Origin: Haematobia irritans
Lineage: Eukaryota > Arthropoda > Insecta > Diptera > Muscidae
DNA: 64,000 bases
NCBI RefSeq assembly: GCF_050003625.1
Contig: NC_134400.1
Coordinates: 225,224,085 to 225,288,084 of the forward strand
Direction: 5' to 3'
The translations under genes and the position numbers were made by a program. Under the pieces are notes generated by a model. The model was not told the DNA's origin, ran no database searches, and was given only the letters and a program-made list of their open reading frames with translations. Of the stretch, positions 1,349 through 56,803 are shown one piece after another. Each line of letters opens with the position of its first letter. The first letter of the stretch is position 1.

Positions 1349-1438
1349 TCAATCCGGTGCGTAGAACCCGCCGCCGTGGGATTGAGGGTCAATCTCTTTG
1401 TGTTATGTGGTTTCTTAGGAAACTAATGTGGGTAGTAT

Positions 1439-1752
1439 CCCTGCCAACATTTTTCGAATTTGGGGGCGCTTCAGAGAATCCCCACTACGTCGAAAACAGT
1501 CGTATACGATATCCAAAACTCCTCGGAAAAGCGCCGTCACTATTGAGAAGTTGTACCACGCCAAGTTACTACAAAAAAGTATCGCATGAGTGCAATTATT
1601 AGATTCCTTTTTTAATAAATTTACAGTGACGCCAATAAGAGCCCCTTCAAACAATCAGAAAAAGTGTATTTTTTTTGGATGTCGTATGCGATTGTTTTCG
1701 ACGTGGTGGGGATTCTCAGAAGCGCCGTCAAATTCAAAAAATGTTGACAGGG
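1439..1752. mobile_element. Fold-back MITE with ~80-bp inverted ends
   Basis: The sequence from CCCTGCCAACATTTTTCGAA (1439 on) recurs inverted at the right end (TTGACAGGG, ending 1752). The arms match over about 80 bp with scattered differences and include the shared block GCGCTTC-GAGAATCCCCAC-ACGTCGAAAACA. Between the arms lies about 150 bp of AT-rich spacer. No protein is encoded and I saw no clear target duplication. Long imperfect ends with a short core fit a non-autonomous DNA transposon; the superfamily is not assigned. Confidence 0.7.
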
Positions 1753-1865
1753 TTGTTGGTCAGATAGTGACCCGTGTCCTATGTAAGTATTTCAAAATAA
1801 TAATCTTCAATTGTGATCAAAATATACCATGGTTAGGTTCGGTTATGTGTAGACTATTCAGTCGA

Positions 1866-2062
1866 TTGTTATGCCACAAGTGGTGAAATTCTCTCTTATG
1901 CCCGATTCTATGTTTAGCTCAATGACAAGGAAACTCCTTTTTATAGCTGAGTGACTGTGAAACGACATAGCTTAGTTGTAATACACTCGGGAATGTTTAG
2001 TCGAAACTGGGGTTGAACCCAAGACCGTTTGTGTGCAAGGCGGGCATGCTAACGGTGGCTCT
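1866..2062 (-). repeat. tRNA-headed SINE, 5' part
   Basis: Read on the minus strand it begins with a tRNA-like head (GAGCCACCGTTAGCATGCCC as A-box region, then GGTTCAACCCC as B box). A body follows with TTTTTATAGCTGAGTGACTG and TTTAGCTCAATGACAAGG blocks. The same body and head occur at 62226-62576 (nearly complete) and as pieces at 4094-4165, 12258-12460 and 26416-26492. Not a functional tRNA: the cloverleaf is not preserved. The family is, to my recollection, a common muscoid-fly SINE. Confidence 0.75.
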
Positions 2063-2767
2063 TTGTACAAAAAAAAAATATAAGTATTGTGGCATAACTA
2101 TTTTTAGAAGACCCATTTTGATATTTGGTGAAATACCAAGAGTAAATAGCTTCTTATAAATTAGTTGTTAGATTTGTATATTTATCAATTCTCAATTCAT
2201 TTAAAAAATGCAAATGCCACAGATCACTTAGATGTACCAATCGCTACAAAATTCCCTACAGCCTATTTTCGTTTTCCCACTGATGCTGATGTACCAGCGT
2301 CTATCAGCCGGTGTTTTCATCATTGATCAACAGAATTGAGTTTTTTTGCTTTTGTTTGTCAACGTTTTATGTCTGTCCATAATCTCAATTGTGGACACAG
2401 ATCTCTTTATGATTTCACCTTGGTGGCATATAGTGAGCAAATAAGTGCTGCTTGGGTACCCCAAGCATCACAAAGAACAGTTGCAAACTCTTGTATGTTA
2501 CTTTTTCATACAAATCATACCTTATAATAATAACGATTGAATTTGTGTTTCGCATTATTCCTACATGGAATAGATCATATTCGTAGGTAGCCAAAAATTA
2601 CAATTTATTGAAATGGCATGAAAAGCAAAACAAGACAAATAGTTATTTGTATATAAACTCTGAGAAATTTTATTTATCGTACTTTTCTTGTACAAGTAGA
2701 TAGGTGAATATTTAAGGGCTGTAACTATTACTGGTTTTACTTAAATTATATTACTTAATCATACGTT
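2063..2767. other. No gene recognised
   Basis: AT-rich sequence downstream of the ringmaker polyadenylation site, with only short chance open frames. I see no repeat shared with the rest of the window and no convincing coding signal. Confidence 0.5.
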
Positions 2768-2773
2768 TTTATT
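2768..2773 (-). terminator. Polyadenylation signal of ringmaker
   Basis: AATAAA on the minus strand, 67 bases past the stop codon at 2840-2842. It is the first consensus signal downstream of the gene. Confidence 0.6.
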
Positions 2774-2839
2774 CACTTTGTTAATAAATTAATTTAAATT
2801 GAATGTAGAAATGATTATTCTTGCGTCTAAAGGGGGAAT

Positions 2840-3479
2840 CTAATTATTTTCGGGATAGGTGTCCTTATTCTGGTAGCCGGAAACATAACCGGAATCATCA
2901 ACGATATTCTTGCGTCCAGCTATACCTTTGCCTTTGCCGCTGGCATCGAAACGTTCTTTGTGAGATCCTGTGTATTTACTAGTGTCGGTTAAACGTTCAA
3001 CTGCAGAAGCCGCCTTGCCAGCCTATATGAAGGAGAAATTAGATTCGATTTGAATATGATTACCTCTTGAGTCATTAGGTGTAAACAATTTTACTTACGG
3101 ATACATGCATCACACCTGGAGCACCACAAGAAGCCATTTTATCTTTGATTTCTTTCAATTCAACCTTTTTGGTTTTAGCCAAATCTTCCAAGTATTTGTT
3201 GTAGTCACTGTAGGAAATCTTCATTGATTTGAATTTCTTGAAGTGGATTCCAGTGTCGGTGGTGGTGATTTTTTTGTCTATAACTTTTGCCTGTTTCATC
3301 CATTTATCACTTTGGGAGAGGGTTATCATTTTTCCATCGGATTTTGTGTCACCAAATTTAGAGAATGCCTTGAATTGATCTTGGAATGAAACCTTAGGCT
3401 CTTCCAATGCCATTTCAGCCATTTCTGCAACGGGGGGAGCTGGGGATGATGATGTTCCATTAGTTGCTTCGTCCGACAT
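2840..3479 (-). CDS. ringer: TPPP/p25-alpha family protein, ringmaker orthologue (two coding exons)
   Basis: Coding exons are 3479-3099 (127 codons) and 3022-2840 (60 codons plus TAG), joined phase 0 across a 76-bp intron (3098-3023) with GTAAGT donor and ATATAG acceptor. The 187-residue product matches the p25-alpha domain from about residue 30 to the end, including the C-terminal family signature [15 protein letters not shown] and [13 protein letters not shown] proteins bind and bundle microtubules; Drosophila ringmaker acts in axon extension (family knowledge). Length is close to the fly protein. ATG at 3479 lies in AAACATG, a good insect start context. It is four bases after a strong splice acceptor (TTTCGTTGTAG, ending 3484), so the leader is spliced. 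The first 25 residues are low-complexity Ser/Pro/Ala/Glu, as in other insect TPPPs. Intact. Confidence 0.93.
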
Positions 3480-3822
3480 GTTTCTACAACGAAATTGGAG
3501 GGAAGATGATTTTAATAAAATTATTGTTGTCATAATAAGTGTTAAAGGTTTATTATATAACGTGGGTGGTCCGATAAGAATCTAAAACAATGCCCGTCGT
3601 ACGATGTCAAGTTGCTATTTCATCAGGCTAAATACTTATCGCACCACCCATTTGGAAGACAGCAAACAAATATTTCTCCAACAAAATGATTAGTGAATAA
3701 AAACCAAAATCCAAAAATTATTCAGTTCCTAAGACAAGAAGAATTTTAATAATTTTGTTTGTCAGCATGATTGATTGATTTATTAATAACATTAAGATTG
3801 TATGCATGTTTAGACGACTTAC

Positions 3823-3877
3823 CTGTAGGCTGCAATCCGAGCAACCATACTATGCATATTTTGTAAATATATATATA
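3823..3877 (-). promoter_or_regulatory. Putative ringmaker promoter and non-coding first exon
   Basis: On the minus strand a TATATATATA run (3877-3864) is followed about 30 bases on by a short segment ending CAGCCTACAG at 3823, directly before a consensus GTAAGT donor (3822-3817). Splicing from this donor to the acceptor at 3484 removes a 339-bp intron and joins a leader of roughly 25 nt to the AAACATG start. Inferred from splice signals only; other promoters further upstream are possible. Confidence 0.5.
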
Positions 3878-6560
3878 GTGTCTCGATCACAGAAAAGTTT
3901 GACAAATTGCAATGGATTTTCTATTACGACCTGTATATGTATTACTAAGTTAGATGATAGTTTTATAAAACTCTAATAATTACGGTATTAAAATCGCCTG
4001 CAATTGGCACACAACTTAATTATAAGGATTTCAATAAGACCGCTTAATAAATGGGAGCAAAGAGTTAAATACGATCGATGATAGGTTGAAGAGTATGTGG
4101 TGAACTCCTCTCCCTGATTCCATATTTAGCTCAATAAAGAGGAACCACCTTTTATAGCCGCGTTTAAAATGATACAAACAGCTTGAGTGTTCTTTTGATA
4201 CTTTTTTACATATGACAATATTTGTCCTTATATTATACCACTGATTACAACTACACACACTATCCTTTATCTACTTTGTCACATTAAGATCCAAAGTAGA
4301 CCAATATCACACATGTGCGTTTATCAGCCTGTGGAATGTATTTAGTATGTATTTGGAAGTTGTTCTAATGACACATATTTGGAAATTGTTCTTTAGACGT
4401 ATTTGCAAAAATGTCCTCCCAACGATGTTATTTTTTTTGTTCTTTCTTTAAGTTCATTTAGCACAGGAACTTTATTATATTTGTTGCCAACGAGCCTCTA
4501 AATAACCGATAGGCGCTGAGGCCAAATTAATATATGAATACATGAATTTTATAACGTTTTACGTTAGAATAAATAAATAAAAATAAAAAACGATTTTTTA
4601 TAATTCGTTTTTCATATTTTTTTACTTCATTCAATTTTTAGTATACAACTACTTTTCTTGCTTCAAATAGGTTAAAGACCGAATAAGACTTAATAAAATT
4701 GTACAAATTATTTAAATTTTATCGAAAAAAATGAGGTCAGTCGTTTCAGACAAGCGCTAAAATCCATTAAGAATCATAAAAAAATGATAAAAAAAAAATA
4801 TTTATTTGGCAAAATATCACAATTTTTTTTTTAATTCGCATCCCCAAAACCTTAAGAAGTGATGCAAATTCAGAGCAACGGAATCCGCCCATGTTAAATT
4901 CATCGCTTCTGCGTCAATTTTTCACCACTTATGGATCCAAAAGAAAATGTTCACTACTTTTTGGCGACGCTTTTATTGCTGGGAATTATTATTATTATTA
5001 CTTTTGTTAGATTATGTTATCTCAAATATATTTATTTTGAACAAGCCGAGTCCGAAAGGGGATGGTATCATTAAGGAAATTAGAGTGCTCATCAACCGAT
5101 TAAATGCATTTATTACTGAAAACTAATCTGAAAATCTGCGCTCAAAAATGCATGAGCGGTTTTCCACAATCGAAAATTATAGTCTTGGAAGTTGAAAATA
5201 ATCCGTTTCACCACATATAAATGATATACCGGAAGGTTTGTGAGTTGTTTTATTGCTGTTGGGGTCTGTTTTTATTCAATATGCTGGATATATTAAAGTA
5301 GGCAAGCAAATTCGAGCTAAACGTATCGCGCTTAACAAATGGTTCGATTTGGTAAATTAAAAAAATAATCATAATAAAAAATGTCCTCATTGCTTCCAGC
5401 TTGAAATATAAGTAATTTTCGGCTAACTACAGACTTTTTAGCAGTAAATTAGGTATTACTAAATTGTAACTGTGTTGTTGGAAAACAGCGGTAGGTGTTT
5501 ACTATTTTAGCAAAGGTTTTTTTCTATAAGTGAAGAGCGTATATACATTCAGAGGTACAATATAAGCATTTTATTTTAGATTTAACCAGCATTTATTCAT
5601 TATAGACTATTAATTAATGCGTGTATTTCATATATTTGTACTATTTGACCATCGCGATCTATGTTGTATAAGTACTTCGGAAACAGTTCGTTTTATATTC
5701 ACTTTGCCCTTCAGATTTATATGGAACACTTTAATAAGAGGACATTACTCATTTTCTTATTAAAAATGGTTTAAAACTTTTCTAAAGACACGATTTAAAT
5801 AACGATATGTAAAACACTACTCATAAAAATGTAATATCCAGATCATTTAGCCTCACTTTACCTCTCTACGAACGCTATTTGATATGGGCAATTGTTTAAA
5901 TGTCTTATGCTCAAATTATTTACTTTTTTCCCATACAAATCGGTTTGTTAGAATTTATAGATATTGGCAAAGTTTTGATCGATCGACGCTTCAGAAGATT
6001 TTAAAATATTCGAATGACAAACATTAGCCGGATTGTTTATTTCGTTAAGATGATGATATCATGACCAAAATGAAACTAAAACACATACACACATGACAAG
6101 CATGTATATCGCTATCCATATCACACCGGAGTGATAATAATTTTATATTTCTTTTTTGTATTTTTTTCTTTTAACAATGGAATCAAATAATGCCAAAACA
6201 ACAAAAACAAATTCTTATCATTCGGAGTGAGGGGAAAATGCGGGTTCTTTCCTAATATTGGTGGGAATAAATATTCTATGTATAGAATAGACTATGTCAT
6301 TAGAAAATCCCATAATTAAAAAAAAAAATATATATAACTCAAAACCTTAATAAAGAATAAGCTGCAGTTCCAGGCGGTAATATTCAAGTCTAATAAAAAC
6401 CAATTTCAAAAAGATTAATAAACATAGATGAATGAAACATTTTTGCAATTCTATGTTACATTTTAATATGTAAATAATTTTGTTGCAATATTATTGGGGA
6501 AGGGTACAAGGGCTCTTATGGCATCAGTCAGTATTCAATTTTGATGAATTTGGAGAGTGT
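3878..6560. other. Gene-free AT-rich stretch with small repeat fragments
   Basis: No coding signal. It holds a SINE-body piece on the minus strand at 4094-4165 (TGGTGAACTCCTCTCCCTGA to TTTTATAGCCGCG), a possible SINE scrap near 5041-5075 (AGCCGAGTCCGAAAGGGG), and a short element at about 5425-5545 belonging to the GCTGTTTTAGCAAAC family (ends TTTTTTTCTATAAGTG). The rest is unremarkable poly-A/T-rich sequence. Confidence 0.5.
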
Positions 6561-6685
6561 ATTGTATACACCCAAAGAGATTTGTTAGTAGAAACAGCGG
6601 AAAAGTCTGCTAAAACAGTAAAAAGTCTGCTGAAATTTGTAAACCACTCATTGTTTGCTGAAATAGCAAACATTGTCTGCTAGTT
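6560..6685. repeat. GCTGTTTTAGCAAAC-motif short repeat
   Basis: Contains CAAAGAGATTTGTTAGTAGA followed by alternating direct and inverted versions of GTCTGCTAAAACAG, GTCTGCTGAAATTT and TTTGCTGAAATAGCAAAC. The same vocabulary recurs near 5425, 8195, 8480, 27690, 61575 and 63690. Non-coding. Confidence 0.6.
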
Positions 6686-6866
6686 TTTTTTTTGCTCGAT
6701 TACACTAAAAAATGTTTTAGTTTGACTGGAACAAATAAAAATGTCAATTTAGGGGCTATCGTAACACAATATTTTGTGAATAGTATTTGCCCAAAAATCT
6801 GAATATTTATCAAATTGAGGCATAACAGTAAACAAAATTTTTGCTGATCGCATTTAGGAGCTTGTA

Positions 6867-8086
6867 ACAGGTTGGCTGATAAGTCCCAACGATTATAATG
6901 ACCTTCCAATTTTTTGATACCATTTTGGTGGTACTCCTTCGGTTTTGCCTCAAAATAGGCCTCAGTTTCGGCGATCACCTCTTCATTGCAACCAAATGTT
7001 TTCCCTGCGAGCATCCTTTTGAGGTCTGAGAACAAGAAAAAGTCGCTGGGGGCCAGATCTGGAGAATACGGTGGGTTGGGAAGCAATTCGAAGCCCAATT
7101 CATGAATTTTTGCCATCGTTCTCAATGACTTGTGGCACGGTGCGTTGTCTTGGTGGAACAACACTTTTTTTCTCTTCATATGGGGCCGTTTTGCCGCGAT
7201 TTCGAGCTTCAAACGCTCCAATAACGCCATATAATAGTCACTGTTGATGGTTTTTCCCTTCTCAAGATAATCGATAAAAATTATTCCATGCGCATCCCAA
7301 AAAACAGAGGCCATTACTTTGCCAGCGGACTTTTGAGTCTTTCCACGCTTCGGAGACGGTTCACTGGTCGCTGTCCACTCAGCCGACTGTCGATTGGACT
7401 CAGGATAGACTAGTGATGGAGCCATGTTTCATCCATTGTAACATATCGCGGAAAAACTCGGGTGTATTACGAGTTAACAGCTGCAAACACCGCTCAGAAT
7501 CATCAACACGTTGTTGTTTTTGGTCAAATGTGAGCTCGCGCGGCACCCATTTTGCACAGACCTTCCGCATATCCAAATATTGATGAATGATATGACCAAC
7601 ACGTTCCCTTGATATCTTTAAGGCCTCTGCTATCTCGATCAATTTCATTTTACGGTCATTCAAAAACATTTTGTGGATTTTTTTTTTTGATGTTTTCGTC
7701 GGTAACCACCTCTTTCGGGCGTCCACTGCATTCACCGTCCTCCGTGCTCATTTCACCACGCTTGAATTTTGCATACCAATCGATTATTGTTGATTTCCCT
7801 GGGGCAGAGCCCGGAAACTCATTATTAAGACAATTTTTGCTTCCACCGTATTTTTTCCCTTCAGTAAACAGTATTTTATCAAAACACGAAATTCCTTTTT
7901 TCCATTTTTTTTTCACAATAACTAAAGTTGCTTCACAAAAGACGCTCTATCTCACAAACTAATTGACTTACAAACGTCAAATTTTGACACGAATCTATTG
8001 AAGGTTGGTACTATATAAAAATAATATGCATTTAATACTAGCGACGCCATCTATGTGTCAGACCGGGGACTTATCAGCCAACCTGT
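6867..8086 (-). mobile_element. Mariner (irritans-type) copy a, defective
   Basis: Ends are ACAGGTTGGCTGATAAGTCC and its inverse, flanked by TA duplications (6865-6866, 8087-8088). Compared with the copy at 16961, about 80 bp of the transposase 3' end and UTR is missing: the left terminal repeat jumps directly to the AACGATTATAATG segment. An extra base in a T-run near 7680 and a second shift near 7420 break the frame. Inserted in AT-rich non-genic DNA. Confidence 0.9.
6903..7916 (-). pseudogene. Mariner transposase, frameshifted
   Basis: Fragments in three frames give, in order: an N-terminal part (7916-7656; KKYGGSKNCLNNEFPGSAPG and STIIDWYAKFKRGE); a second helix-turn-helix part with WVPRELTFDQ (7735-7400); and a catalytic part with HQDNAPCHKSL and YSPDLAPSDFFLFSDL (7425 down). 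These are the mariner HTH domains and the D,D34D catalytic core. The first catalytic block (MDETWLHHY in other copies) falls at the shift near 7425. The C-terminus is replaced by read-through into flanking DNA. It cannot make a working transposase. Confidence 0.88.
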
Positions 8087-30545: not shown

Positions 30546-31395
30546 TATATATACGGCCGTAAGTTCGGCCAAGCCGAAGCTTATGTACCCTCCACCATGG
30601 ATTGCGTAGAAACTTCTACTGAAAACTGTCATCCACAATCGAATTACTTGGGTTGCGGTAACACTTGCCGATGACAAGGTTTCTTAAAACTTCCTAACAC
30701 CGTAATATATACCACATAGCCCATACGTGGTATATATTAAACTAAAAAAGGCCGATTAAATACGTATATAATTAAGTTTAAAGTTTCTATAGAAATAAAA
30801 TTTTGACATTTTCTATAGAAGTAAAATTTGGAAAAAAATTTCTATAGAAATAAAATTTTGACAAAATTTTCTATAGAAATAAAATTTTGACAAAATTTTC
30901 TATAGAAAAAAAATTTTGACAAAATTTTCTATAGAAATAAAATTTTGACTAATTTTTCTATAGAAATAACATTTTGACAATGTTTTCTATAAAAATAAAA
31001 TTTTGGTAGATTATTTTTGGCTCGAGTGGCAACCATGATTATCAACCGATATGGACCAATTTTTGTGTGATTGGGGATTGGCTATATATAACAATGGACC
31101 GATATGGACCAATTATGGCATGGTTATAAGCGGCCTTATACTAACACCACTTTGCAAATTTCAACCGGATCGGATGAATTTTGCTCCTCCAAGAGGCTCC
31201 GGAGATCAAATCTGGGGATCGATTTATATGGGGGCTATATATAATTATGGACCGATATGGACCAATTCTTGCGTGTTTGTTAGATACCACATTCTAACAC
31301 CGTGTTCCAAATTTCAACCGGATCGTATGAATTTAACTCCTCCAAGAGGCTCCGGAGGACAAATCTGGGGATCGATTTATATGGGGGCTATATAT
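30546..31395 (-). repeat. Dispersed tandem-unit element, copy 3 (left part)
   Basis: Inverse orientation: ATACGGCCGTAAGTTCGGCC first, then the tail blocks, the 29-bp minisatellite (30785-31005), and two 150-bp units with GGATCGGATGAATTTTGCTC and GGGGATCGATTTATATGGGG. The gypsy element interrupts it at CTATATAT; it resumes at 38016 and ends near 38180 (CCCCCATCCTATGGTGGA). Confidence 0.75.
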
Positions 31396-31575
31396 TGTTA
31401 CGAATTTGATAATTATAGATATAAGTTTATTTAAATTAGTTTCCGTTAATTTAAAATTTAAAATTGTAACGATAAAATTTCGCTATCACTTGTTGGAATC
31501 ATCTATTCATTTTCTAGTATTTTCCTGAATTTCTTTTATGTTCTTTTGTTTGCTTACCGAAATGTTAGTTCTTAC

Positions 31576-31931
31576 CAAAAACAATAAACTTGAGGAAGAT
31601 AGGAAATTGGCTACTGAGGAGATCAAACCATTTACCGTGTTAGTTTCATACTCGAACCAAACGCGTATACGACAAGTATTGTCATAGCATTAAAATGCAA
31701 ATAAAAAGAAATTAAGTGCACGAAATAAATTTCCTTAAACGGGAAAATATAGTTTTTATGTTGTTGCCTAAAATTTAACATTATTTCATTAGGAAAATTT
31801 AGTTTTTCATTTAAAAAATAAAAACGAAAAACAAATAAAAAATTACGAACATGTATGGAACTAACATGGTAAATGCAACATTTGGTATGACGCAAGCCAA
31901 TTTCCTATCTTCCTCAAGTTTATTGTCTTTG
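31576..31931. mobile_element. 356-bp MITE inside the left LTR, 8-bp duplication
   Basis: Flanked by GTTCTTAC on both sides (31568-31575, 31932-31939); the right LTR has the empty site. Inverted ends of about 36 bp begin CAAAAACAATAAACTTGAGG on the left and CAAAGACAATAAACTTGAGG on the right. The match continues loosely inward (ACCATTTACC against GGTAAATG). An 8-bp duplication points to hAT, with P-like or Merlin-like as alternatives. No coding capacity. Confidence 0.92.
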
Positions 31932-32112
31932 GTTCTTACTCTCTCATAGAATAACAACCCCTTTGCTTTGTTATTTTGCTTTCTCATTTCATCTCATTGT
32001 CTATTGTCATTGTTGTTGTAGTAATGCGAGCATATATCTATGTGAGTGTGTATGTGTTTGGCAGCCACCAGACGAATTACTTAATGGTCGTAGATCCTTC
32101 TAGCATTGTCTA

Positions 32113-32160
32113 AGAATGTTCTGGCGTTGCCAGAATATTGTAGTGCTACCAGAATGTTCT
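32113..32160 (+). promoter_or_regulatory. Heat-shock-element-like palindromes in the LTR
   Basis: Two perfect AGAATGTTCT palindromes (32113-32122, 32151-32160) fit the nGAAnnTTCn heat-shock factor half-site pair. A further CCAGAATATTG lies between them. They sit about 20-65 bp upstream of the LTR TATA box and are present in the right LTR as well. Function is inferred from motif and position only; a full three-unit element is not present. Confidence 0.45.
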
Positions 32161-32178
32161 CGTATTGCCACACCGTCA

Positions 32179-32215
32179 TATATAAAAGCGCTCGCATGCT
32201 GCTAACGAGTCAGTC
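32179..32215 (+). promoter_or_regulatory. LTR core promoter (TATA plus Inr)
   Basis: TATATAAAAG at 32179-32188, with an arthropod initiator TCAGTC at 32210-32215 placing the start at A32212, 33 bases from the TATA T. This would define the U3/R boundary. The same pair occurs in the right LTR. Confidence 0.8.
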
Positions 32216-32364
32216 TTAATTAAAGCGTCAAACGAATAACTTCAGTGTGAACGAATTGTAAAGTGTGAAGTCATAGTAAATAAATTGTAGATTGTCGTTA
32301 TTTAAAAGAACTGTGTTTTAATTGTCGGGTAATTAAAAACGCCTAAATATAAAAACGTAACAAT

Positions 32365-32382
32365 TGGTGTCAGAAGTGGGAT
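32365..32382 (+). other. Primer-binding site (tRNA-Leu-like)
   Basis: TGGTGTCAGAAGTGGGAT begins two bases after the LTR. It is complementary to a CCA-ended leucine tRNA 3' end as I remember it (CCCACTTCTGACACCA). It primes minus-strand DNA synthesis. Confidence 0.8.
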
Positions 32383-32401
32383 AACGAAAAAAAAATCTAC
32401 A

Positions 32402-33823
32402 ATGAAGTTTAATGAGCTTCGAGTGGAAGACCTAAAAAAGGAGTTGAGCAAACTGGAGCTGCCGACAACAGGCAATAAGGCCCAGCTTCAAAAGCGTCTA
32501 CTGGAAGAGTTTGAACGGCGTAATATTGACATTGCGACGCATGAGTTTGATTATAAGGAAGACATTGATGAATCAATACTCGTCAATACCAGCAGTATAG
32601 AAACTCCGTCTGTGGCTTCGAGTGTTGTGGATTACACATCAATGCTCAGTGTTTTGAGCAAAATGATGGAGGAAAACTCTAGAAAAATCATGGATGAGAA
32701 TTCTAGAAAAATGGAAGAAAATTCTAGAAAAATGGAAGAAAATTCTAGAAAAATGGAAGAAACTTCTAGAAAATTGCTGAAAGAAAATGCCCTACAAATG
32801 GAAGCAAGTTCAAGAAAATTGGAAGAAAAATTCGACGAAAATTCTAGAATTCTCAATGAAAAACTACAACAAATTTCTGAAGGCATGGAAAAACGTGTGG
32901 ACCATATAGAAAATCAAATTGTGGAATTGGATAAGAAAGTTCTTTCTGTGGATGAGAAAATTATGGTTCATGATGAGAAGTTTCTGCACATCGAGAAAAA
33001 AATGTCAGAGCTGGAAATTAAAGGTGGTCCAGTGCGCGTCATCGAGGGCTCAAAAATCAAAACTCCTGTTTTCGATGGCTCAACGTCATTTGATGTCTTC
33101 AAATTCCAATTCGAAATGGTTGCTTGTAGAAATTTGTGGAATGACGATGATAAAGCAATTGAACTTCTATTGGCATTAAAGGGCAATGCTGCTGATGTGA
33201 TACAAAGCATTCCCGCTGCTTCTAGAAATAACTATAATGAAGTAATAGCGGCACTTCAACGCAAGTATGGTGGAGAGCACAAGCAAGACATCTTTAGAAT
33301 GGAATTAAGAGGTAGAGTCCAGAAATCAAACGAGACTCTACAAGACTTTGCAACAGAAGTTGAGCGGTTGGTGCTACTGACATACCCAGGAGAGAGTCAC
33401 CCACTTGTGGACCGCATCAAAATTGAGACCTTTGTGAATGGCATTCGAGACCCAGACATAAAATGTGCAACATATGCGTCACAAAAGGCTACATTCGCAG
33501 AAACAGTAACATTTGCACTTGCGCAAGAAACTGCGAGATTGCTGGCACGGCCTCAAATTCACAAAGTACGCAGAGTAGAGACCGAGTGTGAAGAATCGAA
33601 ATCTATCATTGACTCGATGAAAGAGGCAATGAAGCAGGTAATGCAAGAATTGAAACAGGATGCAACTAAATCCCGAATCAAATGCTATAACTGTGATAAG
33701 ACGGGACATCTAGCTCGAGAATGCAAAGCACGACGCAAACGGTCAAGATCCACATCACCATCTCCATTAAACAATAACCATAAGAAGGTGACCCCACAGT
33801 CAAGTGAGTCACCTTTAAACTAA
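32402..33823 (+). CDS. gag: Gag with N-terminal SAP-like domain
   Basis: 473 residues. Residues 4-38 fit a SAP motif (LRVEDLKKELSKLELP, then GNKAQLQKRLL), a helix-extension-helix DNA-binding fold unusual in Gag. Residues about 88-210 are a charged coiled coil with tandem ENSRKME repeats (GAAAATTCTAGAAAAATGGA units). Residues about 220-385 match the retrotransposon Gag core (FDGSTSFDVFKFQFEMVA). A CCHC zinc knuckle (CYNCDKTGHLARECK) lies near 427-441, followed by an Arg/Ser-rich tail. The start ATG is the first after the primer site. The last codons form the frameshift heptamer. It would assemble the particle and bind RNA. Confidence 0.93.
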   Translation: MKFNELRVEDLKKELSKLELPTTGNKAQLQKRLLEEFERRNIDIATHEFDYKEDIDESILVNTSSIETPSVASSVVDYTSMLSVLSKMMEENSRKIMDENSRKMEENSRKMEENSRKMEETSRKLLKENALQMEASSRKLEEKFDENSRILNEKLQQISEGMEKRVDHIENQIVELDKKVLSVDEKIMVHDEKFLHIEKKMSELEIKGGPVRVIEGSKIKTPVFDGSTSFDVFKFQFEMVACRNLWNDDDKAIELLLALKGNAADVIQSIPAASRNNYNEVIAALQRKYGGEHKQDIFRMELRGRVQKSNETLQDFATEVERLVLLTYPGESHPLVDRIKIETFVNGIRDPDIKCATYASQKATFAETVTFALAQETARLLARPQIHKVRRVETECEESKSIIDSMKEAMKQVMQELKQDATKSRIKCYNCDKTGHLARECKARRKRSRSTSPSPLNNNHKKVTPQSSESPLN

Positions 33824-33873
33824 ATCGAGCTAGTTCAGCGGGGCAAGAGCTGGCTCCCACCGACGATGGCCCC
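33814..33873 (+). promoter_or_regulatory. -1 ribosomal frameshift signal: TTTAAAC plus H-type pseudoknot
   Basis: T TTA AAC (33814-33820) sits in the gag frame directly before its TAA stop. After a 6-nt spacer, GAGCTAG (33827-33833) pairs with CTGGCTC (33850-33856). Loop bases GGGGC (33840-33844) pair with GCCCC (33869-33873), giving an H-type pseudoknot with loops of 6, 5 and 12 nt. Slippage by -1 enters the pol frame, which is open from here. Pairings were found by eye. Confidence 0.8.
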
Positions 33874-36800
33874 ACCATCTCCATAGCAATAGTTCAACAG
33901 AAAAATAACAATTTAACTATTGCGGGTGTTATTAATGGCGACAAGCGTACTTTGACGTTGGATACTGGTGCATCAAAGTCTATTATTAGATCTGATTTAG
34001 TAAAAGGAAAAGTTACACCACTGATTGGAGTCAAGCTACGCACGGCTACAGGGGAACCCGCAACCGTATATGGAAAGGTCGCCGTAAAATTAACTATTGC
34101 TAACAAGTCCGTTACTTATGATTTCATTGTGGCCGATATAATAGACGAAGTTATAATTGGAGCGGATTTCATGATTGCTTTTGGTATCAATCTGGATATG
34201 AAGCGTCGTGTAATGACATGGTGCGATGCCGAAATAACGGTAAACGTGGGCTATAGTGAGAATACACCCGTCAGACGTTTGACAACGAGCCAGTCAGAGT
34301 CTATACCACCGAATGCCGAAGCAATTATATGGGTTCCTATGAATGGAGATTGTGAAGTCGGCCAATTGTGGGTTGTTGAACCAGCAGAAAACAAAAGCAA
34401 CATCTTGATAGCAAATGCCCTGGTAACAACGAACGAAGAGAGACTAATACCAGTTCGTGTCTTGAACTTGTCTGACAATCACGAGCAAATTGTAAAATTT
34501 TCTGACATTGGCAAATGTACACCAGCCGAGGCAATAGTCAATTTGGAAGGCAACTCATCAAAGACACATGGAGCAGTGAGAAAACATCTAGAAGCGTATG
34601 TCGAGGCTTGGACACGTCATCTATCGCCGTCAGCGAGAAATAAAGCCAAGCAATTGTTGTGGAAAAACGCCTGTGCTTTTGCTTCTGAAAAGGGAAATCA
34701 AGGAAGAACATCTGTAGTGAAACATGAAATTAAAACCGCAGAAGAAAGGCCCATAAAACAGGCACCACGAAGTGTTCCCCTGGCAAAAAGAGACGAAGTT
34801 CAAAAGCTCATAAAGGATATGGCGGAGAGTGGAGTGATCGAGCCATCATCAAGTCCTTGGTGTTCCCCAGTTGTGCTGGTCAAAAAGAAAGATGGAAGTA
34901 CCCGATTCTGCGTGGACTACAGAAAACTGAATGATGTCACCAAAAAGGACAGTTATCCGCTTCCACGCATTGATGACACGTTGGACACACTAGCAGGAAC
35001 AACATGGTTTTCTACGCTTGATTTGCAGAGTGGATATTGGCAAGTAGAGATCGCCGAGAAAGACAAGGAAAAGACGGCTTTTGGCGTTAATGGCGGTCTC
35101 TGGCAATTCAATGTAATGCCGTTCGGGCTCTGCAACGCTCCGGCTACCTTCGAAAGATTGATGGAGCGGGTACTGAAGGGGTTGCACTGGAAGTCGTGCT
35201 TGATATACTTGGACGACATCATAGTGATGGGCAAAACATTTGACGAGCACCTTAAAAACTTGAAAGACGTTATCCAGCAATTGTCAGCCGCTGGTCTACG
35301 CCTTAACGCAAAGAAATGCTCCCTTTTCCAGCGGGAAGTTAAATACCTGGGTCATCATGTGACTGCAGAGGGCATATCCACCGATGAAGACAAAATCCAA
35401 GCTGTCAGAGATTGGCCACGACCCCGAAATCTCCACGAATTAAGAAGTTTCCTTGGGTTATGTACATATTACCGACGATTCGTCCCAAACTTCGCCAGCA
35501 TCTCCGCTAGTCTCCATAAATTGACGCAAAAAGGTCAGAAGTTCCAGTGGAGCGACGAACAGGAAGATTCATTCCAACATTTAAAAGAACTTTTATGTTC
35601 AGCTCCTGTTCTGGCGTATCCTATTCCGGGCGAAAAATTTGTTTTGGATACAGATGCTAGCGCGCATGGTATTGGAGGTGTGCTATCCCAACAGATAGAC
35701 GGCAAGGAGAAGGTCATCGGATATTTCAGCCGAACGTTGTCCAAGCCCGAAAAGAACTACTGTGTAACGCGACGAGAGCTGCTAGCCGTCATAGAGAGTG
35801 TAAAACATTATCATAAATATTTGTATGGACAACACTTCTTGCTCAGGACTGATCACTCAGCTCTACGATGGTTGCTCCAATTCAAGAATCCGGAAGCTCA
35901 ACTGGCACGTTGGATCGAGAGGCTCCAAAGCTATGATTTCAGTATCGAGCATAGAAAAGGTGGAAAACATGGTAACGCTGACGCCTTGTCACGTCGACCT
36001 TGCAGTATAGAATGCAAGCACTGCTCGAAAGCTGAACACAAGGAGGAGATTGTTGATATTCGGCTGTTACACGTCGAATCTGGAGTGGACTGGCCAACAG
36101 AACAGCGTAAAGATCCCATTTTGATCAAAATTATTTCGGCAAAGGAAGAGAACCAGAAGCCCAGTAAGAAAGACATCGCAGCCGAAAGTCCACTTATGAA
36201 ATCATACTGGGCTCAATGGGATAGTTTAGTTCTAGTCAATGGATCCCTGCAACGTAAATGGGAAAGCGAAGATGGCAAGAGCAGCCGAAATTTGATCATC
36301 GTTCCAGATTCCAAAATAAGAGATGTTTTGGCGGAGTTCCATAATGGTCCCAGTGGAGGTCATCTGGGAATAACCAAAACCGCCGAGAAAGTGAAGCAAC
36401 GATTCTACTGGGTTGGATGCCAGAAATCAATTGCTGAATGGGTAGCCAATTGCGAGAAGTGCATGAAGGCGAAAGGTCCAACAAGGAAAAGTCGAGGTCC
36501 TATGCAAGAATATAGACCAGGAGCCCCGTTTGAAAGAATAGCAATGGACGTGGCAGGCCCTTTCCCAGTAAGTGATTCTGGAAACCGTTATGTCCTTGTG
36601 GTCATGGATTACTTCAGCAAATGGCCGGAGGTGTATGCAATTCCAAACCAAGAAGCAAAAACGATTGTGGATGTTGTCAACAAAAACTGGATATGCCGCT
36701 ACGGTGTGCCGTCCGAGATTCACTCAGACCAGGGAAGAAATTTTGAATCGGCCATATTCAAAGAGATGTGTGAATCCCTTGGTATCAAGAAAACGAGGAC

Positions 36801-37401
36801 TACACCATTACATCCACAATCCGATGGCATGGTAGAAAGGTTTAATCGCACTCTGGAGGAACATCTTCGAAAAGTAGTGGACAACGGCCAGAGGGACTGG
36901 GACGAGCATATACCAAAGTTTTTGCTGTCGTATAGATCTGTCATTCATGATTCCACCTCTCGAACACCGGCCAATGTTCTATTCGGAACTGAGTTGAAGT
37001 TGCCTGGTGATCTGATATTCGGTGCTAAACCTAATGAGCTCGCCATGGAAGAAAACAGAAACGACATCCCAAACACTTTCGGTGAAGTTCACGAATCAGT
37101 GCGCAACAAAATAAAAATGGTCAGCAACAGAATGAAGGCGAGATACGATCGTGCTGTAAATACTGAAGGCTTCCAAGAAGAAGAATTGGTTCTGCTATTT
37201 AACCCGCAACGAAAGAAAGGATTGTGTCCTAAACTGCAAACACAGTGGGAAGGCCCATACAAAGTCATCAAGAAGATCAATGATGTTGTATACCGGATTC
37301 AGAAGGACGACAGCCCTAGATCAAAGATGAAAGTTGTACATCTGGAACGATTGGCTCCTTACGGAACAGGTTCTGTGCCTGTTCGGGACGAACAGGCTTA
37401 A
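33820..37401 (+). CDS. pol: Pol: protease, reverse transcriptase, RNase H, integrase
   Basis: 1194 codons in the -1 frame relative to gag, with no independent ATG near the start. In order: aspartic protease (LDTGASKS, about residue 45; IIGADF later); reverse transcriptase (FCVDYRKLNDVTKKDSYPLP, LDLQSGYWQV, FGLCNAPATF, YLDDIIVMG); RNase H (DTDASAHGIGGVL, RRELLAVIESVKHYHKYLYG); integrase with HHCC zinc finger (HNGPSGGHLG...CEKCMKAKG) and D,D35E core (MDVAGPFP, HSDQGRNFES, HPQSDGMVERFNRTLEEHLR); and a C-terminal GPY-like module (LCPKLQTQWEGPYKVIKKIN). All catalytic residues that I can check are present and there are no stops or shifts. Expected as a Gag-Pol fusion by frameshifting. Confidence 0.95.
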   Translation, partial: LNRASSAGQELAPTDDGPTISIAIVQQKNNNLTIAGVINGDKRTLTLDTGASKSIIRSDLVKGKVTPLIGVKLRTATGEPATVYGKVAVKLTIANKSVTYDFIVADIIDEVIIGADFMIAFGINLDMKRRVMTWCDAEITVNVGYSENTPVRRLTTSQSESIPPNAEAIIWVPMNGDCEVGQLWVVEPAENKSNILIANALVTTNEERLIPVRVLNLSDNHEQIVKFSDIGKCTPAEAIVNLEGNSSKTHGAVRKHLEAYVEAWTRHLSPSARNKAKQLLWKNACAFASEKGNQGRTSVVKHEIKTAEERPIKQAPRSVPLAKRDEVQKLIKDMAESGVIEPSSSPWCSPVVLVKKKDGSTRFCVDYRKLNDVTKKDSYPLPRIDDTLDTLAGTTWFSTLDLQSGYWQVEIAEKDKEKTAFGVNGGLWQFNVMPFGLCNAPATFERLMERVLKGLHWKSCLIYLDDIIVMGKTFDEHLKNLKDVIQQLSAAGLRLNAKKCSLFQREVKYLGHHVTAEGISTDEDKIQAVRDWPRPRNLHELRSFLGLCTYYRRFVPNFASISASLHKLTQKGQKFQWSDEQEDSFQHLKELLCSAPVLAYPIPGEKFVLDTDASAHGIGGVLSQQIDGKEKVIGYFSRTLSKPEKNYCVTRRELLAVIESVKHYHKYLYGQHFLLRTDHSALRWLLQFKNPEAQLARWIERLQSYDFSIEHRKGGKHGNADALSRRPCSIECKHCSKAEHKEEIVDIRLLHVESGVDWPTEQRKDPILIKIISAKEENQKPSKKDIAAESPLMKSYWAQWDSLVLVNGSLQRKWESEDGKSSRNLIIVPDSKIRDVLAEFHNGPSGGHLGITKTAEKVKQRFYWVGCQKSIAEWVANCEKCMKAKGPTRKSRGPMQEYRPGAPFERIAMDVAGPFPVSDSGNRYVLVVMDYFSKWPEVYAIPNQEAKTIVDVVNKNWICRYGVPSEIHSDQGRNFESAIFKEMCESLGIKKTRTTPLHPQSDGMVERFNRTLEEHLRKVVDNGQRDWDEHIPKFLLSYRSVIHDSTSRTPANVLFGTELKLPGDLIFGAKPNELAMEENRNDIPNTFGEVHESVRNKIKMVSNRMKARYDRAVNTEGFQEEELVLLFNPQRKKGLCPKLQTQWEGPYKVIKKINDVVYRIQKDDSPRSKMKVVHLERLAPYGTGSVPVRDEQA

Positions 37402-37412
37402 GCGGGAGGCAG

Positions 37413-38015
37413 TGTTACGAATTTGATAATTATAGATATAAGTTTATTTAAATTAGTTTCCGTTAATTTAAAATTTAAAATTGTAACGATAAAATTTCGC
37501 TATCACTTGTTGGAATCATCTATTCATTTTCTAGTATTTTCCTGAATTTCTTTTATGTTCTTTTGTTTGCTTACCGAAATGTTAGTTCTTACTCTCTCAT
37601 AGAATAACAACCCCTTTGCTTTGTTATTTTGCTTTCTCATTTCATCTCATTGTCTATTGTCATTGTTGTTGTAGTAATGCGAGCATATATCTATGTGAGT
37701 GTGTATGTGTTTGGCAGCCACCAGACGAATTACTTAATGGTCGTAGATCCTTCTAGCATTGTCTAAGAATGTTCTGGCGTTGCCAGAATATTGTAGTGCT
37801 ACCAGAATGTTCTCGTATTGCCACACCGTCATATATAAAAGCGCTCGCATGCTGCTAACGAGTCAGTCTTAATTAAAGCGTCAAACGAATAACTTCAGTG
37901 TGAACGAATTGTAAAGTGTGAAGTCATAGTAAATAAATTGTAGATTGTCGTTATTTAAAAGAACTGTGTTTTAATTGTCGGGTAATTAAAAACGCCTAAA
38001 TATAAAAACGTAACA
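37413..38015 (+). repeat. Right LTR
   Basis: 603 bp, TGTTAC to GTAACA, preceded by a purine tract AAGCGGGAGGCAG. Serves as the empty-site reference for the MITE in the left LTR. Confidence 0.95.
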
Positions 38016-38180
38016 ATATAATTATGGACCGATATGGACCAATTTTTGCATGGTCATTAGAGAACATATACCAACACAATAACAAATATATACTTTATGG
38101 GGTCTTAGAGCAATATTTCGATGTGTTACAAACGGAATGACAAAGTTAATATACCCCCATCCTATGGTGGAGGATATAAA
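38016..38180 (-). repeat. Dispersed element copy 3, right remainder
   Basis: Continues the unit split by the gypsy element (ATAATTATGGACCGATATGG) and ends with the family terminus. The GTCCGTCCGTC region seen in copies 1 and 4 has been deleted. Confidence 0.7.
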
Positions 38181-43358: not shown

Positions 43359-43395
43359 TATAAAAGGATCTAGAACTCCACCATAGCATATCATA
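43359..43395 (+). promoter_or_regulatory. Core promoter of cuticle gene 1
   Basis: TATAAAAG at 43359-43366 with an initiator-like TCATAC at 43391-43396. The start would be near A43393, giving a leader of about 64 nt before the ATG at 43457. Confidence 0.7.
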
Positions 43396-43456
43396 CCTTC
43401 GCTGGGCGAGATTTAGTTCACATCGAAATTCTTGCAGCACCTTTCTGACAACAATC

Positions 43457-44248
43457 ATGAAACTTTGTTTAGTTTTGGTCACCTTGGTTGCAGCAGGCCA
43501 AGCTGCAAGTCTCTCATACATAGTGGCAAGTCCAACACTGCGCTCATATCCTTACGTCTATGGAAGCCATGCCACATCAGTGATTAGCCCTGTTCAACAT
43601 CAGTATCATACACAGGATGAATTGGGACAATATGCTTATGGCTATAGTGATCCTTTGTCCAGCAAACAGGAGGTGCGCTCATTGGATGGTGTCACCAGGG
43701 GATCATATTCATATCGGGATGCCGAAGGGATTCTGCAGACGGTTGATTATACGGCCGATGATACGGGGTTTCATGTCACCGCCACTAACTTACCGAAACA
43801 AGTACAGCATTCCGTCCAATCACAGCAGGAATTACACACACACCAGTCGTCAATTTCCGATACAGATCCCCCAGCTGCCGATTCCACAAATTCCATTTCC
43901 TCAGATTCCATTTCCGTCGATACCGATACTGAATCGATTGCCTCAGCTGGTCCGTCTGGTGATGCAATTTATTCGCGGAGTGGGTTGCGCCTGGCAGAGT
44001 CTTCAGCCTCTCACCCAAAATTTATTTCAAATCCAGCCCATGTTCGCTCTATGGAATTGCCTCAGTCCTTGGCAGATACCCTTAAGGTGGCCACTCCGTC
44101 GGGTGTTTTCGTAAGTGCTAAACCCAGGAACGTTCTAGTGGCAACTCCATTGACCACTGTTACTGGTATTCCAGTTGCTGCAAAATCATTGCTCCAGAAG
44201 GTTTATGGATTTGGCTATCCACTCAGCAAACGTTTCGTATATTATTAA
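43457..44248 (+). CDS. RR-1 cuticular protein (CPR family), Cpr72E-like
   Basis: 263 residues, single exon. Residues 1-16 are a signal peptide (MKLCLVLVTLVAAGQA). An RR-1 chitin-binding domain spans about 52-113 (DELGQYAYGYSDPLSSKQEV, GSYSYRDAEGILQTVDYTAD, then GFHVTATNLP). The rest is a Ser/Thr/Asp-rich spacer (SISSDSISVDTDTESI-type) and a C-terminal YGFGYPLSKRFVYY. RR-1 proteins are secreted by epidermis and bind chitin, usually in flexible cuticle. Start chosen at the first ATG after the TATA-defined leader. Its RR domain is nearly the same as in the gene at 46946, and both share a C-terminal GFP/GYP...RF.Y motif, so they are paralogues. The match to Drosophila Cpr72Ea/Eb is inferred from synteny with ringmaker as I remember it. 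AATAAA at 44316. Confidence 0.92.
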   Translation: MKLCLVLVTLVAAGQAASLSYIVASPTLRSYPYVYGSHATSVISPVQHQYHTQDELGQYAYGYSDPLSSKQEVRSLDGVTRGSYSYRDAEGILQTVDYTADDTGFHVTATNLPKQVQHSVQSQQELHTHQSSISDTDPPAADSTNSISSDSISVDTDTESIASAGPSGDAIYSRSGLRLAESSASHPKFISNPAHVRSMELPQSLADTLKVATPSGVFVSAKPRNVLVATPLTTVTGIPVAAKSLLQKVYGFGYPLSKRFVYY

Positions 44249-46945: not shown

Positions 46946-47638
46946 TTAAACGGTTGGCAAATAGAATCGTTGGGGTAAGATAGGAAATCCATTTTTGTAT
47001 TGGTCTTTGAGGAGTGAAGAGGGAGATCTAATGGCTGGGATCGCCTGGTTAAATACGGCTGAATTGTGGCTCTTAAGGTTTGTGGATTTTCGTAACATTC
47101 GATGTTTTTCCTCTTCTAGGGCGAAACGGGCAAGGAATTCCTTTTTAGCAGCTGCCACTTCAGGTGTGTCCTCCACTGGTTGGGGCAATATGGACGATGA
47201 TGAGATATCTCCTCGTAGAATGGCCTCGTGGGCTGCCAAATGTTTTTGACGAGCCAAAGCAACTTCAGGCGTTTCTGTTACTGGCTTCTGATAAATGTCT
47301 CTGGGTAAATTGGTTGCACTCACATGGAAGCCATCGGAATCAGCAGTGTAATCCACTGTTTGTAATGTCCCATGGGCATCAATATATGAATAGGATCCAA
47401 GTGTTACACCATCGAATGTCCGAATTTCTTGCTTGCTAGACAATGGTTCCGAATATCCGTAGGAGTATTGACCTAGAGAATCCTGTGTAAAGTACTGTTG
47501 CAACTGGGGTTGTGCTTGCTTCAAAGAGGATTTTGCTATCAGTATGGGTGATTGTAATTGCTGAGATGGCACAGGGTAGACATAACTGTCTGCCCACACA
47601 ACAGCAAATAAGGATACGAATGTTGCCAATTGATTCAT
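46946..47638 (-). CDS. RR-1 cuticular protein with two TPEV motifs, Cpr72E-like
   Basis: 230 residues from ATG 47638 (MNQLATFVSLFAVVWA signal peptide); codons further upstream start with TTG and are leader. RR-1 domain at about 52-112 (DSLGQYSYGYSEPLSSKQEI, GSYSYIDAHGTLQTVDYTAD, GFHVSATNLP). Two copies of the cuticle-protein motif PVxxTPEVxxAxxxxLA follow, at about 120-138 and 154-172. The C-terminus NGFPILPQRFYLPTV resembles that of the gene at 43457. Single exon, intact, convergent with that gene. It binds chitin in the extracellular cuticle. TATA box at 47801-47794. Confidence 0.92.
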   Translation of the reverse strand: MNQLATFVSLFAVVWADSYVYPVPSQQLQSPILIAKSSLKQAQPQLQQYFTQDSLGQYSYGYSEPLSSKQEIRTFDGVTLGSYSYIDAHGTLQTVDYTADSDGFHVSATNLPRDIYQKPVTETPEVALARQKHLAAHEAILRGDISSSSILPQPVEDTPEVAAAKKEFLARFALEEEKHRMLRKSTNLKSHNSAVFNQAIPAIRSPSSLLKDQYKNGFPILPQRFYLPTV

Positions 47639-47793
47639 GATGTCTGCCAAGGATTTTCGTTGGTAATTTTTATTTTATTTTTTTTTTCTGTGGAAAAAGC
47701 GCTGCTAGTGTTTTGTCGATGGGGTTTCTGGACTAGTACTCGCTTTAAAGAGTTCTCGATGGGATTTGCGTTATGATCACACTTTGGTTCCTC

Positions 47794-55688: not shown

Positions 55689-56762
55689 TTAATGTAAACG
55701 TTGGTTAATATATGTGGTACTTTTAGCCAATGGTAAATGCCCATGACCATTTCCTCCCACACGAATGGATTCAATTCGAGGCAAAGTTGTTAATACCGTA
55801 GGGATCTCGACAGTATAATGGGTATTGGGATTGTCCACGGTGAAATAGGTATCTTGTGAATTTCGCACATTTGGCTCGTCTTGCCATAAATTGATGGATC
55901 GTAGATTGGATATATCAATGCGATTGCCATTGGAGTTTTCCTCGTTCCGATTACCGTTATTATTTTGATCATTTTCATTGGAGGAGGGATGCCCATTGTC
56001 ATTTCCCACCTTAAGTATAACATTTGATTCGGCGTTTTCCGTGCTGTAGAGTGTCCTTAAATCTGATGTGCCACCATTGGGTTCTATACGTGCCTGGGCA
56101 TGGGCATGAGCTTGCCCACCATGACTACGTGCTTCGGCTTGGGCACTTATTATGTACGTTGTCATAAGCTGTGACTGTTGCTCCTCCCGAGCTCTTTCTT
56201 CTTCATGTTCTCGTAGCAACGAGAGCAATTGATCCCTGGATGTCTGGTGAACCAATAGCTGCTCCCGCGCATTCTGTTGAAACTCAGCATTGTGGATAGC
56301 TTCAGCGGATGCCTGTTGTATTGCAGCATTTTCCAATTCTTCGGTATCGGGTTGCATGGCAGCCTGAAGGGCTGCTTCGCGATATGCCTCAAAATGGGCA
56401 TGCTTGGCTATTTCAACTTCTGGCGTATCCGTTACTTGTTCTGGTGGTTGACTATTATCCACAGGCTGAACGGGAAGATTAGTAGCTGATGCAGTAAATC
56501 CTTGGTTTCGACCAGCCTCATATTTCACAGTTTGCAATTTGCCATCTGAATCGATGTACGAATAGAATCCCTTAGAAGAACCATCGAGCGTCGTGTACTC
56601 AGCCTTAGCAGATTCTTCTCCACTATAGCCGAATGAGTAAAATCCTTTAGAGTCCTGTTCTCTGTATTCAGTTGTAGGAATTTCAGTCTTGACCAGGACC
56701 AAGTGATGATTGCGGGATGCAGTTACCACCGCAAATAGGGCACAAATGATGATAAATTTCAT
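55689..56762 (-). CDS. RR-1 cuticular protein with long Gln/Asn-rich tail, Cpr72E-like
   Basis: 357 residues from ATG 56762 (signal peptide MKFIIICALFAVVTA); two codons upstream begin with TTG and are leader. RR-1 domain at about 33-97 (EQDSKGFYSFGYSGEESAKA, GFYSYIDSDGKLQTVKYEAG, GFTASATNLP). One TDTPEVEIAKHAHFEAYREA motif follows at about 111-130. Then come an Ala/Gln/Glu-rich segment (130-225), an Asn-rich tract near 262-285 and a C-terminal stretch ending YINQRLH. Single exon and intact. It is more diverged from the two other cuticle genes than they are from each other, and about 9 kb away. Extracellular, chitin-binding by family. TATAAG at 56803-56798. Confidence 0.92.
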   Translation of the reverse strand: MKFIIICALFAVVTASRNHHLVLVKTEIPTTEYREQDSKGFYSFGYSGEESAKAEYTTLDGSSKGFYSYIDSDGKLQTVKYEAGRNQGFTASATNLPVQPVDNSQPPEQVTDTPEVEIAKHAHFEAYREAALQAAMQPDTEELENAAIQQASAEAIHNAEFQQNAREQLLVHQTSRDQLLSLLREHEEERAREEQQSQLMTTYIISAQAEARSHGGQAHAHAQARIEPNGGTSDLRTLYSTENAESNVILKVGNDNGHPSSNENDQNNNGNRNEENSNGNRIDISNLRSINLWQDEPNVRNSQDTYFTVDNPNTHYTVEIPTVLTTLPRIESIRVGGNGHGHLPLAKSTTYINQRLH

Positions 56763-56797
56763 TTTCAAATAGAATCGTTTCCTCTGTGCAAGCTCCT

Positions 56798-56803
56798 CTT
56801 ATA
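56798..56803 (-). promoter_or_regulatory. TATA-like box of cuticle gene 3
   Basis: TATAAG on the minus strand, 36-41 bases before the ATG. A start 30 bases downstream would leave a leader of only about 10 nt, so either the leader is very short or another promoter is used. Confidence 0.4.

What the first reader, a model, noticed from the sequence alone, without database searches (positions are those of the whole stretch)
33814..33873. Complete -1 frameshift cassette with H-type pseudoknot between gag and pol
The gag stop is immediately preceded by T TTA AAC in the correct phase, and pol is open in the -1 frame. After exactly 6 nt, a 7-bp stem (33827-33833 with 33850-33856) forms. Its loop holds GGGGC, which can pair with GCCCC at 33869-33873 (loops 6, 5 and 12 nt). 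Heptamer, spacer and pseudoknot are all as in well-studied retroviral sites. I do not know of this being described for this fly lineage.
Basis: partly seen in the sequence, partly recalled or inferred. Interest (0 to 1): 0.75.

Follow-up and report, generated by a model that had tools for sequence, protein, structure and literature searches.

The report
Frameshift signal in a fly retrotransposon
A young, many-copy jumping element in what looks like a fly genome carries a textbook signal predicted to make some ribosomes slip back one base at the end of its first gene and go on to make its enzymes; it is a well-formed example of a mechanism already known from retroviruses and many insect elements.

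Summary
A Ty3/gypsy-type LTR retrotransposon (31396-38015) has gag (32402-33823) and pol (-1 frame, open 33808-37401) overlapping by 16 nt. T TTA AAC (33814-33820) lies directly before the gag stop, in phase. Six nt on is a stem of 10 bp, not 7 (33827-33836/33847-33856); its loop GGGGC (33840-33844) can pair with GCCCC (33869-33873), an H-type pseudoknot with loops 3, 2, 12. None of 2000 dinucleotide shuffles and 4 of 2000 synonymous recodings scored as well. Of 45 distinct genomic copies read, window included, 44 keep the heptamer and 45 both stems, but they are too alike to show covariation. Of 24 Gag-like relatives 13 have a tail after the zinc knuckle; 11 of these end Asn-stop, as a ...AAC shift site predicts. 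A hairpin without stem 2 is not excluded; frameshifting was not measured. The kind is known: 28 of 51 surveyed animal LTR elements have pol in -1 (PMC5009743). Verdict: real, probably functional, ordinary in kind.

The parts
31396..32362 (+). 5' LTR (TGTTAC...GTAACA), 967 nt, carrying a 364-nt insertion (356-nt core plus 8-nt duplication)
   Evidence: otherwise identical to the 3' LTR
31392..31395 (.). target-site duplication ATAT, left copy
32365..32381 (+). primer-binding-site-like stretch tggtgtcagaagtggga; match to tRNA-Leu is recalled, not tested
32402..33823 (+). gag: SAP domain, PNMA-like capsid match (below cut-off), CCHC zinc knuckle; ends ...SPLN-stop
33808..37401 (+). pol open in the -1 frame: protease, reverse transcriptase, RNase H, integrase
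33814..33820 (+). slippery heptamer T TTA AAC in gag phase, directly before the gag stop
33821..33826 (+). 6-nt spacer, beginning with the gag stop TAA
33827..33836 (+). stem 1, 5' arm (10 bp)
33840..33844 (+). stem 2, 5' arm GGGGC in the loop of stem 1 (predicted)
33847..33856 (+). stem 1, 3' arm
33869..33873 (+). stem 2, 3' arm GCCCC (predicted)
33865..33879 (+). competing 5-bp hairpin GATGG/CCATC (-5.7 kcal/mol) that would exclude stem 2
37413..38015 (+). 3' LTR, 603 nt, purine-rich stretch just upstream
38016..38019 (.). target-site duplication ATAT, right copy

Best explanation
It is the gag-pol junction of a recently active Ty3/gypsy LTR retrotransposon without an env gene. Most ribosomes stop at the gag TAA and make Gag. 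A minority, held up by the structured RNA that begins 6 nt after the heptamer, slip back one base on U UUA AAC (P-site UUA to UUU, A-site AAC to AAA) and go on in the -1 frame to make Gag-Pol (protease, RT, RNase H, integrase). The stimulator is most likely an H-type pseudoknot (10-bp stem 1, 5-bp G-C stem 2), about 0.7 against a plain 10-bp hairpin. Shown: sequence, phase, frame change, predicted structure beyond shuffles, identity across the copies read. Inferred: that slippage happens, its rate, and the pseudoknot in the cell.
For: ORF layout with a 16-nt overlap and the heptamer inside it. Domain content. Pseudoknot score -20.4, reached by 0 of 2000 shuffles and 4 of 2000 synonymous recodings; the nested fold is reached by 62 of 2000 recodings. 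Of 45 distinct genomic copies read, the window's included, 44 keep TTTAAAC (L034 has TTTGAAC) and 45 keep all bases of both stems. Of 24 Gag-like relatives 13 have a tail after the zinc knuckle; 11 of these end in Asn-stop, 7 in Leu-Asn-stop. In Lucilia sericata one protein ends SPLN and another, a joined model, reads SPLKRASTEGQELAP, which fits the same -1 overlap. A distant Pol (P0029) begins MFKLK, which fits TTT AAA C read in the pol frame. Distant elements found in bacterial bins put other heptamers near the gag stop: L005 TTTTTTC 3 nt before it with a predicted pseudoknot (0 of 2000 shuffles as good), L006 GGGAAAC directly before it.
Against: No translation was measured. The copies are nearly identical, so their agreement shows a recent burst more than selection on the RNA. 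The stem arms also encode Pol residues shared with relatives (RAS, GQELAP, DGPTIS), so protein constraint alone could keep them. The best nested fold, with a second hairpin at 33865-33879, scores -21.5, as good as the pseudoknot's -20.4 in my simple model. Two of the 13 tailed Gag-like proteins do not end in Asn (P0007, labelled partial; P0040, from a 909-base contig). Musca autumnalis models P0003, P0025 and P0026 join gag and pol through a different linker without the RAS...QELAP peptide, so this stem is not universal. L006 gave no pseudoknot and L003 only a weak one (45 of 2000 shuffles as good).
Confidence: 0.9

Rival explanations
1. The same -1 frameshift, but stimulated by a plain 10-bp stem-loop; the GGGGC/GCCCC pairing is chance or minor, and 33865-33879 forms its own hairpin. 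(A variant of the best explanation; its odds are conditional on frameshifting.)
For: Nested minimum fold -21.5 against -20.4 for the pseudoknot model; stem 1 alone -14.7, competing hairpin -5.7. One search gives the nested fold a frequency of 0.66 in the nested ensemble.
Against: Five pairs, all G-C, at fitting loop lengths (3, 2, 12); 4 of 2000 synonymous recodings reach the pseudoknot score.
Confidence: 0.28
2. Pol is made without frameshifting, by splicing or re-initiation; the heptamer is a leftover.
For: None direct. CsRn1-like elements are reported to use fused, separate or -1 overlapping ORFs (PMC2582038, abstract and passages), so strategies do change.
Against: Phase, placement directly before the stop, and recurrence of Asn-stop in 11 of 13 tailed relatives. 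Plain stop readthrough would stay in the gag frame, which is not pol's frame.
Confidence: 0.05
3. Chance arrangement in a dead element.
For: A stop triplet follows some slippery heptamer in 92 of 7211 cases in this window; one other heptamer in the window has a stronger downstream pseudoknot score.
Against: Both ORFs open, LTRs identical apart from one insertion, near-identical copies elsewhere in the genome, 27 of 30 loci with pol still open to the locus end.
Confidence: 0.02

Closest known systems
-1 gag-pol junctions of animal LTR retrotransposons, mostly Drosophila (2003 survey as told in PMC5009743 section 11)
   Same: pol in the -1 frame, classical heptamer at the junction
   Different: That passage mentions no pseudoknot for the animal elements; the original survey was not read (the DOI I recalled for it was not held)
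Coronavirus IBV U_UUA_AAC frameshift site with pseudoknot
   Same: Same heptamer (PMC5009743 passage); long stem 1 and short stem 2 (recalled)
   Different: Different genome, gene junction and structure sequence; no homology claimed
PEG10, a mammalian gene derived from a Ty3/gypsy element, with -1 frameshifting and a pseudoknot stimulator (PMC5009743 passage)
   Same: Ty3/gypsy origin, -1 shift, pseudoknot stimulator
   Different: Domesticated single gene; heptamer and structure not compared here
CsRn1-like Ty3/gypsy elements of Anopheles (PMC2582038, abstract and passages)
   Same: Insect Ty3/gypsy; nine elements reported with two ORFs overlapping by -1
   Different: tRNA-Trp primer site and unusual CHCC Gag motif there; CCHC knuckle here and a primer-site-like stretch that by recall fits tRNA-Leu

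Membership tests
Ty3/gypsy (Metaviridae-type) LTR retrotransposon | Pol order protease - RT - RNase H - integrase | tested here: met
   Pfam on three pieces of pol
Ty3/gypsy (Metaviridae-type) LTR retrotransposon | LTRs TG...CA, short target duplication, primer site and purine tract | tested here: met
   TGTTAC...GTAACA, ATAT duplication, primer-site-like and purine-rich stretches; tRNA partner recalled only
Ty3/gypsy (Metaviridae-type) LTR retrotransposon | Placement in an RT tree among named clades | not tested
   No named reference set was used
Programmed -1 ribosomal frameshift site | X XXY YYZ heptamer in the upstream phase within the ORF overlap, downstream ORF in -1 | tested here: met
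Programmed -1 ribosomal frameshift site | Structured RNA 5-9 nt downstream | tested here: met
   6-nt spacer; predicted fold, z-score -2.09 nested
Programmed -1 ribosomal frameshift site | Measured trans-frame product | not testable with these tools
   needs reporter, profiling or proteomics
H-type pseudoknot stimulator | Loop of stem 1 pairs with downstream sequence at feasible loop lengths | tested here: met
   (a prediction by a simple energy model; a nested fold scores as well)
H-type pseudoknot stimulator | Compensatory changes in both stems among relatives | tested here: inconclusive
   45 copies show no change in either stem; no DNA of diverged relatives of this family was obtained (later genome searches with P0009, P0010, P0011 did not complete)

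The most novel reading that the evidence does not exclude
The pseudoknot, not just the heptamer, is an old and selected stimulator shared by the SAP-domain Gag elements of muscid and blow flies, and insect Ty3/gypsy elements widely use retrovirus-like pseudoknots with changing heptamers at one fixed place, as the distant element L005 (host unknown) with its own predicted pseudoknot hints.
Probability: 0.35. Interest if true: 0.4.

Novelty: new member of a known kind. Interest (0 to 1): 0.22.

Why it matters
It gives a clean, many-copy, recently active insect element in which the frameshift signal is fully predicted, useful for annotating gag-pol genes that automatic models appear to split or join at this place (the Lucilia and Musca autumnalis models are candidates; inference from their proteins) and for testing how insect ribosomes use retrovirus-type pseudoknots. 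It does not change what is known about the mechanism.

Tried and rejected
Viral contigs (5 scans) gave no relative. Rfam at E up to 1 on 33700-34000 gave nothing. The one genome-contig scan gave 8 distant Ty3/gypsy loci in bacterial bins. In one search two of the 8 (L001, L002) are open in the pol frame from the contig start, so no junction is seen; L004 has one long frame open over 1255-6954 and no junction with a knuckle-bearing gag in another frame; L007 and L008 have short or interrupted pol frames; L003 has an in-phase TTTAAAC, but its upstream ORF showed no zinc knuckle and ends 48 nt after the heptamer, and 45 of 2000 shuffles matched its structure score; L005 and L006 have a knuckle-bearing gag, pol in -1 and a heptamer at the gag end, but L006 gave no pseudoknot in the model. 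Comparing copies for extra conservation at the junction was uninformative: differences are clustered in gag and much of pol is as little changed as the junction (6 of the loci). A first script failed from a coding slip and was rewritten; ViennaRNA's pseudoknot routine was missing, hence the home-made model; an equality check was off by one and was replaced. ARAGORN found no tRNA in the window. The clade within Ty3/gypsy was not determined. Papers: seven answered searches listed no paper whose title or abstract start speaks of such a site in muscid or blow-fly elements; one search listed none at all; the library lacks most subscription papers. PMC12992720 and PMC6797199 were only searched for terms and gave nothing on shift sites.

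Full report
What is there. The window lies in a 1.17-Gb assembly in 181 contigs. It is an insect's: the window also encodes three proteins with the insect cuticle domain Chitin_bind_4, and named Gag relatives include proteins of Musca, Stomoxys, Lucilia, Calliphora and Rhagoletis. The assembly is unnamed; a muscid-like fly is an inference. At 31396-38015 lies an LTR retrotransposon: LTRs of 967 and 603 nt beginning TGTTAC and ending GTAACA, 4-nt duplication ATAT, a primer-site-like and a purine-rich stretch. The LTRs are identical apart from one 364-nt insertion in the 5' LTR, so the element is young. Gag carries a SAP domain and a CCHC knuckle; pol carries protease, RT, RNase H and integrase. 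Pol ends at 37401, 11 nt short of the 3' LTR at 37413, so there is no room for env.

The junction. Gag ends at TAA 33821-33823; pol is open from 33808 in the -1 frame, an overlap of 16 nt. TTTAAAC at 33814-33820 is in gag phase as T TTA AAC. GGGGC 33840-33844 can pair with GCCCC 33869-33873. Loops are then 3, 2 and 12 nt.

Chance. With a simple model (Turner stacking values and a fixed pseudoknot penalty, both recalled into the script) the score was -20.4, and the same structure was best for three penalties tried. Of 2000 dinucleotide shuffles 0, of 2000 synonymous recodings 4, and of the 191 recodings with like G+C 1 did as well. The nested fold of the same stretch is -21.5, reached by 62 of 2000 recodings, and 13 of the 191. 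Of 1433 slippery heptamers in the window this ranks second. A slippery heptamer directly before a stop triplet occurs in 92 of 7211 cases, TTTAAAC in 2 of 7211, this site included.

Copies. The DNA search listed 40 scored matches out of 850 candidates, all printed as 100% identical after rounding; a search with the Gag-like protein P0041 listed 150 scored matches of 1922 candidates. I read junctions in 16 loci from the first list (L009-L024; L010 is the window itself) and 30 from the second (L025-L054); L018 and L053 are the same element by position, leaving 45 distinct. The rest of both lists was not read. In one search, 8 of 16 were identical to the window over 111 nt and 8 differed by one base, C to A at 33861, in loop 3. 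In one search, 29 of 30 had TTTAAAC (L034 TTTGAAC), 30 of 30 had the same stems, and pol was still open to the locus end in 27 of 30. Two tails occur, gag ending SPLN or SSLN. This is agreement within a recent burst and is weak evidence for selection.

Relatives. Two Gag searches gave 24 proteins. Thirteen have a tail after the knuckle by the pattern used; the other 11 (joined, truncated or lacking the knuckle) were set aside. Of the 13, 11 end in Asn (QLN 2, PLN 4, SLN 1, KN 1, EN 2, GN 1), while P0007 and P0040 do not. Several are close kin, so they are not 11 independent cases. Asn directly before the stop is what an AAC A-site codon predicts; their DNA was not seen. The QLN tails imply A or G before the Leu codon; a G_UU(A) P-site shift is mentioned for equine arteritis virus in PMC5009743 (passage). 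The pol-frame peptide over the structure, RASSAGQELAPTDDGPTIS, recurs as RASTEGQELAPTSDGPTIS in Lucilia (P0027) and in part in P0016 and P0015, but not in the Musca autumnalis models P0003, P0025, P0026. In Lucilia the Ser-to-Thr change would shorten stem 1 to at most 8 contiguous pairs (inference from the codons).

Distant comparisons. Two misbinned elements, 41% and 60% identical to the window in the best RT segment (the second over about 100 residues only), have gag and pol in the same -1 relation with TTTTTTC and GGGAAAC at the gag end; the first also has a strong predicted pseudoknot (0 of 2000 shuffles), the second none in the model. They are 2 of 8 loci; most of the others show no usable junction. 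So the arrangement is not peculiar to this family, and the letters vary.

Known or new. A review section that I read whole (PMC5009743 section 11) says that 28 of 51 animal LTR retroelements surveyed have pol in -1 and many have classical heptamers, most from D. melanogaster. Passages of it list U_UUA_AAC among the shiftiest sites and PEG10 as a Ty3/gypsy-derived gene with a pseudoknot. The finding is therefore a good new member of a known kind. What remains open is whether the second stem forms and matters.

Noticed in passing
31568-31939: A 356-bp insertion with terminal inverted repeats (about 81% alike over ~80 nt) and an 8-bp duplication GTTCTTAC sits in the 5' LTR only; the 3' LTR has the empty site at 37585-37592. 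It looks like a hAT-type MITE (label recalled) that landed after the element.
   Followed up: partly
30779-31385: Tandem repeats upstream: a 29-bp unit (30779-31010) and a 153-bp unit (31080-31385); a related stretch follows the 3' LTR (38016-38077), so the element seems to have landed in a repeat.
   Followed up: no
32669-32839: Gag holds a 21-nt tandem repeat coding MEENSRK-like units of a probable coiled coil; alignments to other copies are gapped here, which suggests varying copy number.
   Followed up: partly
43364-44248, 46946-47674, 55689-56798: Three ORFs with the insect cuticle domain Chitin_bind_4.
   Followed up: no
L001-L006: Ty3/gypsy-like fragments lie in contigs filed under bacterial metagenome bins, presumably contamination of those bins.
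   Followed up: partly
window 1287, minus strand: A slippery heptamer followed by the strongest pseudoknot score of the window (-22.7); no gene context was examined.
   Followed up: no
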